Origin: Leucosporidium creatinivorum
Lineage: Eukaryota > Basidiomycota > Microbotryomycetes > Leucosporidiales > Leucosporidiaceae
NCBI GenBank assembly: GCA_001600635.1
Contig: BCKL01000001.1
Span: 1,096,808-1,160,807, forward strand
Direction of reading: 5' to 3'
Length of the DNA stretch: 64,000 nt
Shown: in pieces, positions 4,869-38,552 of the stretch
Layout: each line of letters opens with the position of its first letter
Position numbering within the stretch: the stretch's first letter is position 1
Translations under genes and position numbers: made by a program
Notes under the pieces: generated by a model
Seen by the model: only the letters and a program-made list of their open reading frames with translations
Told to the model about the DNA's origin: nothing
The model's database searches: none

Positions 4869-6964
4869 ATGCAGCAAGCAGGTCGGTTCCAGGAGGTTGA
4901 AGGTCTCGACCCTGCCGCCGAAACACAAGCCGGCCTCCCTTTGCAAGGTTGCCCTCCTGCGCATCCAGTCGGAGAGGAGCAGCACTTGACCAGCGCTCGC
5001 CGACCTTCGAACACCGTGGCTCGACGACGAACCTCGACCGGGGCCGAGGGACTACCGCCCTCTCTCCCCTCCTCATCCCACACCCCTCTCGCTTCGATGA
5101 ACACGGCCAGCAGCTCTGGTACCTCGCGCACGAGCGATGCCGGGCTCACTACAGGCTTAACAGGGAGGAATAGGATGCTCTTGCCCGTCAACTTGGCCGT
5201 CAGGCGCGGCTCAGCTCAGTTCGACGCCATGAAGAGCTCCCTCAGCAATCACCCAGCGCTGGCCAAGCGGAACCGAAGCAAGTTCTTGGGCGGAGTAGTA
5301 GGGACGCTGCTGCTGGTGTACATCATCTCGAGGAATCTGTGAGTGGTCTTTTCGGTCTACTGGGCTGCAGCAAGGAGCAGAGGATGCGGAGAGCGCCTCG
5401 CGTGGCTTGTTTATGGAGTGAAGGGTCAAGGAGACCTCGGATGAGCTCTGTAGAGCAGCAGCAGATAGCTGACCATCTTTTGTATCTACTCATCTAGCAC
5501 CGGCTCGCGACGGCCGTCAACAGGACCGCCCTGCGACGCTCACGCTGCTCCCGGCCGACTCCTCATGAACCTCACCTCACCGCTGCACACTCACTGGCGA
5601 CCACTCAACGAGGTCGAGTGCCCAGCTCTACCACCATATCTCGCTTCCCTTTGGGAGCTCACTCACGGCCCCGACCGCGATCTCCCCCGCTACGCCGACT
5701 CGGTCTTCTCGGAGGACTACCGCTTGCTCGGCGCTTCACCAGAACCCTTCCCCGCCTCCTGGCTTACCTCCACCAATGGAAGCAACATCGAGCACGATCC
5801 CATCTACTTCCTCCGCAAGAAGCGCTCCACCCCTCCAACAGTCCTCGTGATTGGCGATTCGGTCGACCGGAACGGCCTCGTCCACTTCTGCCAGCTCTTC
5901 AAGCGCAACGTCACCATCTCCCACTACCACGACGTTCATCGCCATCCTCCAGATGCCCCAGCAGGCGATCTGACGAAGGGGCACGGTCCCAAGTTCGAGG
6001 GATGGGACCAGCGAGGCTTGCCCCATCTCTGCGAGATTCCGTTCTACTCGGAGAAGGGACGAGGACACTCGGGAGTCGCCATGCGCGTCGTCAACGGCTT
6101 CCACTACGGAATGGATGCTTTGGACGAGTTTGATACTCCCGACCATGCCGACTGGCATAAGCCTGGACGAGTCGAGGTCAGGATCGAGGAGCTTATGGTG
6201 CCGATGCTCGAGCAGATGGGAGGACCCGATAGCGTGGATGTGGTACAGCTGCATAGTGGGATGTGGGATCTGGCGAGGCGCACATCTCTTCACCTTCGTT
6301 TCCCGCCGAGCTGACCCTTTCTCCTCCTCGTAGGCTCTATTCGGCCTGCAAGACGACAAGACCAAGTGGAGTCTCACCGTCCCTCTCACGCCTGAGCAAC
6401 TCGCCTGGTGGCAAGAGCGCATGCGCCGTACCATCTATCACGTTCGACAGACGTTCCCGAGGGCGAGGGTCGTCTTCCGCAAGCTTCACCGAACAGACGA
6501 CTCGATCGCTGGCACGCAGTACATCACCAACCGTGAGTTTTTGGTAATTTAGTCTCACGCTCGCTTAACGCTGACTCTCATCCCCCTTCTCGCAGTGTGA
6601 GTGGCACTTCGGCGATGGCTCACCTCCGGCCCCGCCTTCCCAGCTCAGCGTTCTGACCCACTTCTCGTCCCGCAGGCGCGTCAACCAGCTCCGTCACCTA
6701 CAAGAGGAGGTCGCCAGGTCTGAAGGTCTCCCCATCTTCGGTCAGTCCAGCCTCCCTCGGCCCTCATCTCGCCCCTCGCTAACGCCTTCTTCTACCCTCG
6801 TAGACTTCGGCCACCTCCTGGAAGGCTACCAACTCTTCCAGGAAAAGGTCCACCCGCTTCTCGTGCCCGGTGGAGTCGTCTACGCCCAGAACTTGGTGCA
6901 TCAGCTGAGGCTGGCGCTGGAGAGCAAGGAGTCTTGGAGGAAGGGTTGGTTCAAGGGTGGTTAG
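4869..6964 (+). CDS. Type II membrane SGNH / PC-esterase-like protein
   Basis: Exons 4869-5338, 5498-6272, 6334-6532, 6596 alone, 6676-6740 and 6804-6964 give 556 residues. A single transmembrane anchor (FLGGVVGTLLLVYIISRNL) near residue 140 follows a polar N-terminus, so the rest should be luminal or extracellular. The catalytic region shows VLVIGDSVDRNG (SGNH block I with Ser), LHSGMWDLALFGLQDD, and a C-terminal FDFGHLLEGYQLF ... KVHPLL that carries the late Asp/His block. The family acts as esterases or O-acyltransferases on glycans or lipids; the substrate is unknown. Two splicing features are unusual: a GC donor at 6273 and an inferred one-nucleotide exon at 6596. Both are required to keep the family frame. 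Confidence 0.78.
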
Positions 6965-34811: not shown

Positions 34812-36926
34812 CTACACCTTCTTCTTCTCGCCCAACACCTTCATCCTGACCCTCTCAAAACCCTCCCTCGCGATCCTCATCCCCTGGACATCCTCCCCCT
34901 CGCCCTCCTTACCCTCGCCCTTGGCAAACTCCATAGCCTTGGCATAAAACGCCTCCGCCACCGCGGGACCACCACACCACTCCGCCTCCTTCTCACTTCC
35001 CTTCCCCTTCCCCCACCGCGAGCCGGAAGACGACCTCGGCCCCATCTCATGCACCAAAGCCACGAGGTTGGCGCTCATAGCGCCGGTGACCCTCGCGTCC
35101 CTCTGGACCTGTTTGGCTGCCTTGCCCAGGATCCTTTCCTTCGAATTGACCCAGCCGGTGGGCTTGACCTTCAAGAGAGGGGAGGGTTCGAGGGCGTGGA
35201 GAACGGATTCAGAGGTGTGAATTGAGCCTTGGAGGAGGGAGAGGGAGAAGGGCTCGGTGGAGGGGAGGCGAAGGGCGAGGGAGACTTCGGCGAGGTGGGT
35301 TGAGAGGACGGAGGTGCGGGTCGCGAGGTGGAGGTGGGTTAGGGCGTGGGAGGCTGTTGCTACGGCGGTGGAGGAGGAGGAGAGGGTGGGAGTGGGGAGA
35401 GTGGTAGGTGTTGTTGGTGAGTGGGGGAGGAGGAGTTGCGTCAAGTGCAGGGCGGAGGATTGGAGAGCGTGCGCCGCGGGGAGGGAGTGCTGGCGTGCGA
35501 GTTGGGCTTCGAGGGAGATGAGAGAGGCGATGATGGCGCGGTAGGTTGCTGGATGGAGGGGGGAGGCGGAGGAGTTGTGCGCGGTGAGGAGGTCGACGAG
35601 GGTCGAGAGTTCAGGGCGGAGGGGAGCGGAGGGCGAAGAGGGAGTAGGGATGGTGCTGAGTGTAGGTGAGGAGCCGGAAGGGTGGGATCGTGACCAGAAC
35701 GCGAAGAAGGAGGACATGGGCGAGGCGACCTTCTTCAGCGACGAGGAGGACGATTCCTCGGCGATAGTCGAGCGATCTTGTCGATGATGGTCGGCCTTGG
35801 CCAGTTCGGGCAGCAGTCCACCAAGGATCCATCCCTCCGCCTTGCTCTGCTCCAACTCCCTCTCCTCGGTTCCTGCCCTCCACAGCAGCGCCAACCGCGC
35901 CGACAGCTCTCCCAGCTTCCTCGTCGCTCGCAGCTTTTCCCTCGTCTCCCACCCAGTAGGCTGCGACGACGCCGAGAGGGCATAGTAGATCCTCTCCCAT
36001 CCCTCGCGAGCCTCCTCCAACTTGTACCGTCCGCCGATCCTCTCCCTCAATCCAGCGAGGCGCTCCTCCAACTCGACAGCCGCTCGGTCGACTCCGCTGC
36101 CGAGTGCTCCGGGAGTAGCAGTGTAGGTGACGGAGGTGGGGTGGGATTGTGGTGCACCTCGCTCGTGTCCCTCGGGGAAGACGAGCGAGATACCCTTCTT
36201 CTCGGCGCGAGTGAGAGCGTAAACGAGGTAGTCCTCGGCGAGCCTCCACCCTGCATCTCCGACCTCGGTGCCCAAGCTCGGCTGCTCGACGCTCTTGCCT
36301 CCAATCATCGTTCCGCCGAGGGAGGAGGCGAAGGGGTTGCCCGTCGAGTTGGAAGTGCGAAGCGCCTGTTGCGTTTGGGAGACGGGCGAAGCGACGATAC
36401 CGCCTCCCCAATGCTGCGAGATCCATGCGCCGCGAATCGCCGCTCGGGCAAAGAAGCCCAGTCGAGGATCGGTCCCTCCTCCCCTCCATGCTCCTGACCA
36501 TCCTTCCAGCTCCTCGCCCCAGCCTTCGGGGTCCTGCTCTTCATTTCCCTCGACTGATCCTCCCGCCAGCTCGACCTTCTCAACCCAAGCATGTACCGCA
36601 GCGACGGATCCTACGCCGAGGACGACGATGCTGACCGAGCCAAAGACGGCGTAGCGAAAGAGTTGGTGAAAGAAGGAGGCGGTATGGAGCAAGGGGGAGG
36701 CGTAGTCTTCTACAGGGAGGTCGGTGGGAGGGAGAGGTTTTGCTGCATCTTCTGCTGTGTAGGTCTTGACTGGCTCGATGGGAGTGGTGAAGGTGGGCTG
36801 TCGTTCGAGGCGAGGAAGCGAGTGAGGGAGAGAGCGGGAAGTGGTAGAGGAGATAAGCCGAGCTGTAGGGTGTGCTAGCCGTGTAGGTCGTAATGCTGTC
36901 CGTAACATGCTGCTACAGCGAGTCAA
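34812..36926 (-). CDS. Mitochondrial membrane protein, possibly TPR-like (Mgr3-type)
   Basis: A single exon of 704 residues. The N-terminus (MTRCSSMLRTALRPTRLAHP) is a basic targeting sequence. One transmembrane segment (AVFGSVSIVVLGVGSVAAVHA) lies near residue 95. The C-terminal two thirds is helical with repeats that look like degenerate TPRs (RPELSTLVDLLTAHNSS, ATYRAIIASLISLEAQLA, VAEAFYAKAMEFAKG). This plan matches basidiomycete relatives of Mgr3, an adaptor of the i-AAA protease, but the match is by architecture only. Intron-less and long, which is rare in this window. Head-to-head with the CENP-O gene (186 bp between starts). Confidence 0.6.
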   Translation of the reverse strand: MTRCSSMLRTALRPTRLAHPTARLISSTTSRSLPHSLPRLERQPTFTTPIEPVKTYTAEDAAKPLPPTDLPVEDYASPLLHTASFFHQLFRYAVFGSVSIVVLGVGSVAAVHAWVEKVELAGGSVEGNEEQDPEGWGEELEGWSGAWRGGGTDPRLGFFARAAIRGAWISQHWGGGIVASPVSQTQQALRTSNSTGNPFASSLGGTMIGGKSVEQPSLGTEVGDAGWRLAEDYLVYALTRAEKKGISLVFPEGHERGAPQSHPTSVTYTATPGALGSGVDRAAVELEERLAGLRERIGGRYKLEEAREGWERIYYALSASSQPTGWETREKLRATRKLGELSARLALLWRAGTEERELEQSKAEGWILGGLLPELAKADHHRQDRSTIAEESSSSSLKKVASPMSSFFAFWSRSHPSGSSPTLSTIPTPSSPSAPLRPELSTLVDLLTAHNSSASPLHPATYRAIIASLISLEAQLARQHSLPAAHALQSSALHLTQLLLPHSPTTPTTLPTPTLSSSSTAVATASHALTHLHLATRTSVLSTHLAEVSLALRLPSTEPFSLSLLQGSIHTSESVLHALEPSPLLKVKPTGWVNSKERILGKAAKQVQRDARVTGAMSANLVALVHEMGPRSSSGSRWGKGKGSEKEAEWCGGPAVAEAFYAKAMEFAKGEGKEGEGEDVQGMRIAREGFERVRMKVLGEKKKV

Positions 36927-37112
36927 ATCGAGTCGAGGTGAAAGCGTAAGAGGGAGAGGGCGAGCCGCTTCGCTCCTTGGCTTCTTACCGCTCGCTCATT
37001 TCTGGAAATCGCTCCTCCGCCTTCGTCGAGCCTACAGACGACTTCGAAAGCTCCTCAATAACCTACAGCTGCTTCCCTTCTTCATCTCATACACTATTCG
37101 GCCCAAACGAGC

Positions 37113-38552
37113 ATGTCAACAGTCGCCTCCGTCTCTCAATCCGAGTCGCTCGACTCTCTCAGGCAACGAGGTGAGCTACAGAGCTACAGGGCCAGTCTTT
37201 ATTCAGTCTAACGCGTCTTGCGCTCCACAGCCGCCGCTCTACGCGCACAGTTGGCCCACCTGCAAGCCTCACGCCCTCCGACCCCTCCCATCGCGCCTCT
37301 GCCGTCTCTCACCTCCCTTCGCCCGCTTCCCACCCACTCTTCTTCCTCCTCCTCTCATCTCACTACCACCCTCCCCGGTTCGGACCCCAAGCAAGCCGAA
37401 CTACACGCGACACAAGAGCTCGCGAGGAAGTATAGGATCACGGGGAGGAGTGTGTTCCCTGTGGAGTTGGCGAGGGGGGTGAGGGCTAAGAGGGAGGCGT
37501 TGGAGAGGGAGAAGAGGGAGGGGAAGGGCAAGGGGAAGCAGAGGGATGAGGCGGAGGGGGGAAAGGAGAGGCAGTTTGTCAAGAAGGGGGTAGCTGTGAG
37601 GTTGGAGACGTTCTATGAGGGTGAGTAGAGTATGTTCAGCTCTTCTAACCGTTCGACTGACCTCTGATTGTCTCCAGGGAGGTACTACGAGCTCTACTAC
37701 CTCGTCTTTGCCCCTCAAACCGACTCGACCCTCAACGCCGAACCCAGCAGCAACGCCGAGAAGCCCCCTCCACTGCACATCGTTCACCACTCCATCCCAC
37801 ACTGGCTACCACTCAAAGACCTATCCCAGAAGTACCTTGGCGTCGGCATCCGCGGCGAGGAGGACGAGTTAGCAGAAGACGATGGCTCCGAGCTATCGAG
37901 CAAGAAGGCCGTTCAGCCCGACCTGGACGTGAGTCGCTCAATCGAGCTACCTCTCCCCAACGAACCTCGCTGACAGCCGCTTTGCTATACCACAGCTCTT
38001 CCTCACGCGCCTCGCCGTCTTCCTCAACGCCCACCTCTCCCGCCGCGAGCAGCTCATCTCCCTCCGCGCGGCCTACTCCCTCTCCGCATTCTCCTCGCTC
38101 GATTTCCGCGTCTTTGCCAGCGAGTCAAACGATCGGGTTATCGTCGAATGGGACCTTGCTACCCCCATCGAAGCAGAGGAGGAGGCGGAGGAAGAAGGAG
38201 ATAGGACAGAGAGGATCGTGGTCGTGCAGATGGCGTTCCTTGACTTGAGGGGGAGTTTGTTGGCTACCAGTCGGTCGGAGGGGATGGGAGGGTCGTTGTT
38301 GGTGCGGTATGTCGAGAGGAAACCGGCTGGAGGTGAGTCCAAGGTTTCGAGCTGACCTGGAGCCGAGCGCCGAGATGCTGATCATCCCTCTCTCTTGCGC
38401 GGTGTGCAGGTGAACCGCCAGTGCAGGTCGTACTCGAAGAGCTTACTACGCAGGTAGTGAAGGGCCCGAAGGGGGGAAGGAGCATGCTGGAGGTGATCAA
38501 GGAGCTGGTGGAGGAGACGACAGCCGAGGGGTGGTCAGCCGAGGAGGTGTAG
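37113..38552 (+). CDS. Kinetochore protein CENP-O / Mcm21-like
   Basis: Exons 37113-37170, 37231-37620, 37678-37928, 37996-38332 and 38410-38552 give 392 residues. CENP-O (Mcm21, fission yeast Mal2) is a RWD-domain subunit of the COMA part of the inner kinetochore. Matching features are an N-terminal coiled coil (SLRQRAAALRAQLAHLQA), AVRLETFYEGRYYELYYLVF as the first RWD strands, LHIVHHSIPHWLPLKDLSQKY, and a C-terminal second RWD with RVIVEWDL and RIVVVQMAFLDL. An acidic loop (EEEAEEEGDR) interrupts the second RWD. Assignment is from these motifs by memory of the family. Confidence 0.72.

What the first reader, a model, noticed from the sequence alone, without database searches (positions are those of the whole stretch)
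6533..6675. Inferred single-nucleotide exon
In the esterase-like gene, exon 3 ends at 6532 with one leftover base (AAC C|). Two textbook introns follow, 6533-6595 (GTGAGT, CTGAC, CGCAG) and 6597-6675 (GTGAGT, CTGAC, CGCAG), separated by one base, T6596. Joining C+T+G gives CTG and the family-like frame NLRVNQLRHLQEE...FDFGHLLEGYQLF. Treating 6533-6675 as one intron shifts the frame into a stop. One-base exons are known from very few cases, such as an Arabidopsis APC11 exon.
Basis: partly seen in the sequence, partly recalled or inferred. Interest (0 to 1): 0.85.

Follow-up and report, generated by a model that had tools for sequence, protein, structure and literature searches.

The report
Likely one-letter exon, fungal esterase gene
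A fungal enzyme gene seems to contain an exon only one DNA letter long, a structure reported with proof in only a few plant and fungal genes, but no RNA was available to prove it here and the closest sister gene leaves room for another reading.

Summary
The letters are as described: C6532, intron 6533-6595, T6596, intron 6597-6675, both donors GTGAGT, both acceptors CGCAG. C+T+G gives CTG and an intact 454-aa SGNH/GDSL-like protein. A home-made gene finder, trained on another 200 kb of this genome with no minimum exon length, chose the 1-nt exon, also with frameshifts allowed. Of 1302 enumerated in-frame models it ranked first; the best single-intron model was 6.7 nats lower. Pfam Lipase_GDSL_2 scores it best of the four models given (24.5 bits against 21.7, 20.7, 19.5).

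The closest paralogue, joined by eye, fits better when 6596-6675 is read as protein (293 against 272), and its own intron lies at that place. So the second 'intron' probably descends from coding sequence: either it was recently turned into an intron, leaving one base as exon, or it is still coding behind a weak donor at 6544, or one base near the junction is wrong or mutated. Splice signals favour the 1-nt exon; I put it at about 0.55. One-nt exons are known in plant APC11 and VPS55 and Fusarium CYP621A. RT-PCR decides.

The parts
5175..5338 (+). exon 1 of the SGNH/GDSL-like gene: start ATG and hydrophobic stretch FLGGVVGTLLLVYIIS
   Evidence: the start codon is my choice (the gene finder started further upstream, at 4869)
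5498..6272 (+). exon 2: GDSV block, ends ...GMWDL; GC donor at 6273
   Evidence: the gene finder instead ended this exon at 6233, but the predicted paralogue L010 reads GLWDLAFFGRQD across this join
6334..6532 (+). exon 3, ends AAC C (phase 1)
6533..6595 (+). first intron, 63 nt, GTGAGT...CTGAC...CGCAG
   Evidence: donor 6.2 and acceptor 7.2 nats, percentiles 73 and 67
6596..6596 (+). candidate single-nucleotide exon, T, middle base of a CTG leucine codon
6597..6675 (+). second intron, 79 nt, GTGAGT...CTGAC...CGCAG; in the rival reading part of coding sequence CEWHFGDGSPPAPPSQLSVLTHFSSRR
   Evidence: donor 6.2 and acceptor 9.0 nats, percentiles 73 and 90; resemblance of its open frame to paralogue coding sequence
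6544..6595 (+). rival intron (GTAATT donor) that keeps frame if 6596-6740 is retained
   Evidence: 34.6 against 41.3 nats
6676..6740 (+). next exon, RVNQLRHLQEEVARSEGLPIF
6741..6803 (+). ordinary intron, 63 nt, GTCAGT...CTAAC...CGTAG
6804..6964 (+). last exon, DFGHLLEGYQLFQEKVHPLLVPGG... to TAG
   Evidence: the gene finder ended this exon at 6944 and ran on into the next gene

Best explanation
T6596 is a real single-nucleotide exon in a fungal SGNH/GDSL-like, probably membrane-anchored hydrolase gene. Two complete short introns sit one base apart. Acceptor CGCAG|T and donor T|GTGAGT overlap too closely to be bound at the same time, so the introns should be removed one after the other by intron definition, like a recursive splice, in either order (inferred from known spliceosome behaviour; order not tested). 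The mature codon is C+T+G. Leaving the base out or keeping the second intron breaks the frame (shown in sequence). The second intron most likely arose from coding sequence that now carries splice signals, leaving one base of the old exon behind (inferred from the paralogue).
For: Ab initio search without a minimum exon length, trained elsewhere in the genome, picks it, and still does with frameshifts allowed at costs of 7, 9 and 12 nats. It is first of 1302 enumerated in-frame models at 41.3 nats; second (40.1) keeps the same 1-nt exon with acceptor 6648; best single intron 34.6. Strong donor-acceptor pairs 45-120 nt apart inside coding sequence are rare: 0 in 96,283 nt of predicted long exons, 0 in 28,455 nt of long ATG ORFs, 3 in 89,622 nt of stop-to-stop ORFs. 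Pfam Lipase_GDSL_2: 24.5 bits over 85 residues on 85 positions, against 21.7, 20.7 and 19.5 for the three rivals given. The join recreates TN-x-R[VI]xQ of paralogue L010; 8 of 5000 random 5-mers in place of YITNL score as well.
Against: No transcript. The by-eye-joined closest paralogue (L010) scores 293 with the second intron translated and 272 with the 1-nt exon; with stiffer gap costs (13, 2) three models beat the 1-nt one: 275, 264 and 256 against 250. 3 of 3000 shuffled, 0 of 3000 intron-derived and 4 of 3000 coding-derived inserts reach 293. Against eight machine-predicted paralogues the 1-nt model is best of the ten models in one (L010, wrongly joined) and beaten by some rival in seven; against the read-through alone it wins 5 of 8. 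Content of the second intron is neutral between intron and coding, and its interior G+C (0.69) is above the intron mean (0.58, s.d. 0.07). The gene finder trained on its own predictions, fused this gene with its neighbour, and with frameshifts allowed used 144, 61 and 17 of them elsewhere, so it is a coarse tool. No length prior against 1-nt exons was charged.
Confidence: 0.55

Rival explanations
1. One ordinary intron 6544-6595 with a weaker GTAATT donor; 6596-6740 is all coding (484-aa protein ...YITNREFLCEWHFGDGSPPAPPSQLSVLTHFSSRRRVNQ...). The GTGAGT at 6533 and the signals of the second intron are unused, or used only in minor isoforms.
For: Frame open and intact. Best fit to the by-eye-joined paralogue tail, 293 against 272, and the similarity of the extra segment is unlikely by chance. 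24% of predicted donors are as weak as 6544.
Against: Scores 6.7 nats below the 1-nt model; leaves a GTGAGT 11 nt upstream and a complete strong intron unused; Pfam score lower (21.7 against 24.5); its intron is phase 0 whereas the paralogue's at this place is, by my reading, phase 1 with a GTGAGT donor.
Confidence: 0.17
2. A one-base error in the assembly, or a recent real one-base frameshift, next to an ordinary phase-1 intron 6533-6595; the 79 nt are coding (or were, in a decaying gene) and their splice signals are coincidence.
For: Paralogue L010 has a phase-1 GTGAGT intron at the same place followed by DWRHTGSG, like EWHFGDG here but one base out of step; hypothetical in-step joins score 297, 297 and 311 against 272.
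Against: Needs a strong intron with donor exactly one base after an acceptor and of frame-restoring length to arise by coincidence. A gene finder allowed to skip one or two bases did not do so here, though it did elsewhere. The rest of the reading frame is open. Reads not available.
Confidence: 0.16
3. Another splicing: a [D1,2] stwintron (G6543 + internal intron 6544-6595 + external donor GTGTGA), or single introns 6519-6675, 6537-6675, 6544-6643 or 6544-6688.
For: All keep frame. Some are the best of ten against individual distant paralogues: 6537-6675 with L012, L013 and L015; 6519-6675 with L016; the stwintron with L011.
Against: Weak donors (6519 GTACAT 1.2, 6537 GTTTTT -1.5 nats). Lower against the curated L010 tail, 247-261 against 272, though 6544-6643 ties at 272 and is ahead (264 against 250) with stiffer gap costs. 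Pfam 20.7 (6519-6675) and 19.5 (stwintron) against 24.5; the others were not scored in Pfam.
Confidence: 0.12

Closest known systems
Fusarium CYP621A single-nucleotide exon (PMC12940212; abstract, Results and Discussion read)
   Same: Fungal nuclear gene; one base between two short GT-AG introns, needed to keep frame; a family member without the introns serves as length marker.
   Different: There 20 orthologous genes and RNA reads from two species support it and the base is G (AGGGT); here one genome, no RNA, base T, and the closest paralogue favours a longer reading.
Arabidopsis APC11 single-nucleotide exon (PMC4674806; abstract and Discussion read)
   Same: One-base constitutive exon; its authors propose intron definition combined with recursive, one-after-another removal.
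   Different: Supported by reporter-fusion constructs in Arabidopsis and rice; a plant gene, conserved in most land plants (PMC8831610 passages).
Plant VPS55 1-nt microexon (PMC8831610; passages only)
   Same: A conserved GTRAGT donor stands right beside the acceptor; the passages tie the copy without the microexon to loss of the donor next to it, which resembles the paralogue relation seen here.
   Different: RNA-supported and conserved across land plants.
Fungal stwintrons (search listing; PMC5639578 passages)
   Same: Two nested introns removed in succession in fungi.
   Different: In a [D1,2] stwintron the internal intron splits the external donor and no exon base is left; that arrangement scores worse here against L010 and Pfam.
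Intronization in Cryptococcus (PMC2740785; abstract)
   Same: An internal exonic region becomes an intron by new splice boundaries.
   Different: The abstract reports five cases among 28,256 studied introns; here inferred from one paralogue without cDNA.

Membership tests
single-nucleotide exon | complete donor, branch site and acceptor in both flanking introns | tested here: met
   donors at percentile 73 and 73, acceptors with branch site at 67 and 90 of 476 predicted introns
single-nucleotide exon | including the base restores the family frame; omitting it or keeping an intron breaks it | tested here: met
   but other in-frame splicings exist
single-nucleotide exon | length marker in a relative without an intron at this junction shows exactly one base missing | tested here: inconclusive
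   the DNA alignment to paralogue L010 places one base at TCACCAAC, but the score is the same with and without T (73 and 73), and the paralogue has an extra coding segment upstream that fits 6596-6675
single-nucleotide exon | spliced RNA carrying the single base | not testable with these tools
   no transcript data held
single-nucleotide exon | conserved in orthologues | not testable with these tools
   no collection of fungal genomes on hand; scans of genome contigs and viral contigs gave no relative
[D1,2] stwintron | internal intron splits the external donor between its first and second base, with a family-like product | tested here: inconclusive
   in frame and best of ten against L011 (254 against 245), but 259 against 272 with curated L010 and 19.5 against 24.5 bits in Pfam; external donor would be the atypical GTGTGA
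Lipase_GDSL_2 (PF13472) | score over the curated cut-off of 32.9 bits | tested here: not met
   22.3 bits, E 2e-4 for the whole protein; 24.5 for the C-terminal part

The most novel reading that the evidence does not exclude
The 79-nt second intron is a freshly intronized coding segment, so the one-base exon is the stump of an old exon caught at its birth. The two frame-keeping splicings (donor 6533 with removal; donor 6544 with retention) may both be made, giving a short and a long enzyme, while the two mixed choices break the frame.
Probability: 0.25. Interest if true: 0.65.

Novelty: new member of a known kind. Interest (0 to 1): 0.42.

Why it matters
If RNA confirms it, this would be one more gene family with a one-base exon and, as far as my searches of the held library show, the second reported in fungal nuclear genes. 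The paralogue would give a concrete route by which such exons arise: an exon is turned into an intron from a donor that appears one base after an acceptor. It would also be one more gene that callers with a minimum exon length misread.

Tried and rejected
Single intron 6533-6675 with ribosomal frameshifting: considered, not tested. Repeated or introner-like intron: the 401 bases 6400-6800 match only themselves in the genome. Orthologues: none in genome contigs or viral contigs, where 54 and 5 pattern matches were not confirmed. PDB by sequence: best E 0.13 for this protein. NCBIfam: best E 0.05, nothing meaningful. Codon usage and composition of the 79 nt: neutral. A first comparison with machine-predicted paralogues was misleading for L010 because the gene finder had joined that paralogue wrongly; I redid it with introns joined by eye, which reversed the order of the two leading models. 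Bare count of AG-N-GT sites: not rarer than chance. Paper searches for microexons in fungi (15 of 51 listed) and for Pucciniomycotina with introns or small exons (10 of 397 listed) showed no further fungal 1-nt exon in what was listed.

Full report
What is there. The window lies in a 27.7-Mb, 63-contig genome; a 200-kb sample of it has about 60% G+C. The gene reads, on the + strand, 5175-5338, 5498-6272, 6334-6532, 6596, 6676-6740, 6804-6964, 454 aa, with a hydrophobic N-terminal stretch, a GDSV block and HPLLVPGG near the end. Pfam gives only a sub-threshold Lipase_GDSL_2 match (22.3 bits, cut-off 32.9). A fragment of its phenylalanine ammonia-lyase matches PDB 1t6j and 1y2m far better than the other 15 chains listed (222 bits against 46 and less); I recall 1t6j as the Rhodotorula toruloides enzyme, so a basidiomycete yeast related to that group is likely, but this is recall plus one gene.

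The observation. Both introns have GTGAGT, CTGAC and CGCAG. Against 476 introns that my gene finder predicted in 200 kb of another contig, the donors lie at percentile 73 and 73 and the acceptors at 67 and 90. The 481 predicted introns used for training have a median length of 66 nt and an upper quartile of 84 nt; 63 and 79 nt are typical, 143 nt is long.

Splice-site test. I wrote a codon-plus-splice-site gene finder with no minimum exon length, trained it on C2:300001-500000 only, and ran it on the window. It chose T6596 as an exon by itself, the only internal exon of fewer than 6 nt among 151 in the window; in the training region 410 internal exons included one of 0 and six of 3-6 nt, which I regard as doubtful. 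Weaknesses: it trains on its own output, fuses this gene to the next and misses the GC donor at 6273. Enumerating in-frame models between fixed flanks (41 donors, 16 acceptors, one or two introns; 1302 models), the 1-nt exon scored 41.3 nats, the same exon with acceptor 6648 scored 40.1, and the best single-intron model (6544-6595, rest read through) 34.6. No exon-length prior is in those numbers; charging a few nats for a 1-nt exon would narrow the lead. Allowing one- or two-base skips at costs of 7, 9 and 12 nats did not change the choice here, although the finder used 144, 61 and 17 such skips in the 264 kb, so most of those are probably spurious.

Chance. In 264 kb, both strands, 331 acceptors and 345 donors reach the strength seen here, and exactly one pair stands 1 nt apart: this one. 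But 0.26 is expected per spacing, and spacings 0, 3 and 6 also have one each, so the motif count alone proves nothing. No 1-nt split as good appeared in 2000 dinucleotide shuffles of 6539-6650. Strong donor-acceptor pairs 45-120 nt apart inside coding sequence: 0 in 96,283 nt of predicted long exons (a biased sample, since the finder avoids such pairs), 0 in 28,455 nt of long ATG ORFs, and 3 in 89,622 nt of stop-to-stop ORFs, which may include real introns.

The paralogues. A protein search of the own genome found a closest relative on C10 (49-51% in pieces) and more distant ones on C2, C13, C19 and C1. On C10 (L010) one exon reads ...DWRHTGSGDPGAVEKFSNFFTNARIHQIREMQEQVAHETGIPAFDFGEIWEGWQSHQQMVHPLL, with no intron at the place of our junction. 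TN-A-R-I-H-Q-I-R lines up with TN-L-R-V-N-Q-L-R, and 8 of 5000 random 5-mers in place of YITNL score as well. That is the length-marker argument used for CYP621A. By eye, N stands at this position in L010, L015 and L016, and H, Y, F and K in L011, L014, L017 and L018 (reading; seven of the ten regions fetched, L012 and L013 could not be lined up there and L019 does not look like a relative).

The conflict. When I joined the L010 introns by eye, its tail scored 272 with the 1-nt model but 293 with the model that reads 6596-6675 as protein. With gap costs of 13 and 2 the read-through (275), intron 6544-6643 (264) and the 1-nt exon with acceptor 6648 (256) all pass the 1-nt model (250). The extra match is EW-HFGDGSPPA against DWRHTGSGDPGA. 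Shuffled inserts reached 293 in 3 of 3000, inserts from introns in 0 of 3000, inserts from other proteins in 4 of 3000 trials; in a second setting 1 of 3000 shuffles reached the observed score. The L010 intron, also with GTGAGT and phase 1 by my reading, ends just before DWRH. So 6597-6675 looks like a descendant of coding sequence, one base out of step with a phase-1 entry. Both the match of YITN to FFTN and the match of the 79 nt to the segment before it have chances near 0.001, and as plain homology they exclude each other. With eight machine-predicted paralogues the 1-nt model is the best of ten in 1 (L010, there wrongly joined) and beats the read-through in 5. Pfam Lipase_GDSL_2, which is independent of this genome, prefers the 1-nt model: 24.5 bits, 85 residues on 85 positions, against 21.7 (read-through), 20.7 (6519-6675) and 19.5 (stwintron). 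The DNA alignment to L010 scores the same with and without T (73 and 73), so it does not by itself demand the base. The content of the 79 nt is neutral: intron score 1.68, coding score 1.53.

Weighing. The spliceosome does not read frames. With a GTGAGT at 6533 and a full strong intron at 6597-6675, removal of both is the expected outcome, and it yields an intact protein. The read-through model needs a weak donor to win over GTGAGT 11 nt upstream and a strong intron to be ignored. The base-error model needs the same coincidence plus an error. On the other side stand the rarity of 1-nt exons and the paralogue. I settle at 0.55 for the 1-nt exon, with recent intronization as its likely origin; the weights are judgement, not a computed posterior.

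Mechanism. Shown: two complete introns, one base apart; including the base keeps the frame, skipping it or keeping the second intron breaks it. Inferred: the two sites cannot be bound together, so removal is sequential by intron definition, as proposed for APC11 (PMC4674806 Discussion). Not shown: any RNA, the order, or a regulatory use.

Known cases. Searches of the held library for 'single-nucleotide exon' (14 papers) and six other spellings (9 papers) showed, for nuclear genes, Arabidopsis APC11, plant VPS55 (PMC8831610 passages) and Fusarium CYP621A, which its abstract calls the first for a fungal gene. A mitochondrial cox1 single-base exon in placozoans appears by title in the listing; two papers on fungal mitochondrial introns hold the term but I did not read them. 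'stwintron' gave ten papers, and 'intronization' with 'fungi' and 'exon' gave 48, of which 12 were listed. I saw no report of this gene or of a basidiomycete 1-nt exon in these listings; most subscription papers are not held.

Noticed in passing
window 6273-6333: GC-AG intron in the same gene (CTG|GCGAGG...CGTAG). In the gene finder's training introns about 9% of donors were GC, high enough to be worth a check, though some will be false.
   Followed up: no
G000:C2:300001-500000, predicted gene at offset 34967-37314 of the joined piece: The gene finder placed a zero-nt exon (ctacag|gtcagt), i.e. an acceptor touching a donor as in recursive splicing; frame does not test it.
   Followed up: no
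G000:C13:591830-592384 (-) and 625939-626364 (+): Two closely similar inverted copies of a related gene about 34 kb apart, one with an in-frame TAA where the other reads on.
   Followed up: no
window 6643 and 6648: Two further AG acceptors inside the second intron; 6648 keeps the frame with the 1-nt exon and adds nine residues (40.1 against 41.3 nats).
   Followed up: partly
window 48239: A single N; the C2 sample has runs of 2225 and 2700 N and scattered single Ns, which may be scaffold gaps or withheld stretches.
   Followed up: no
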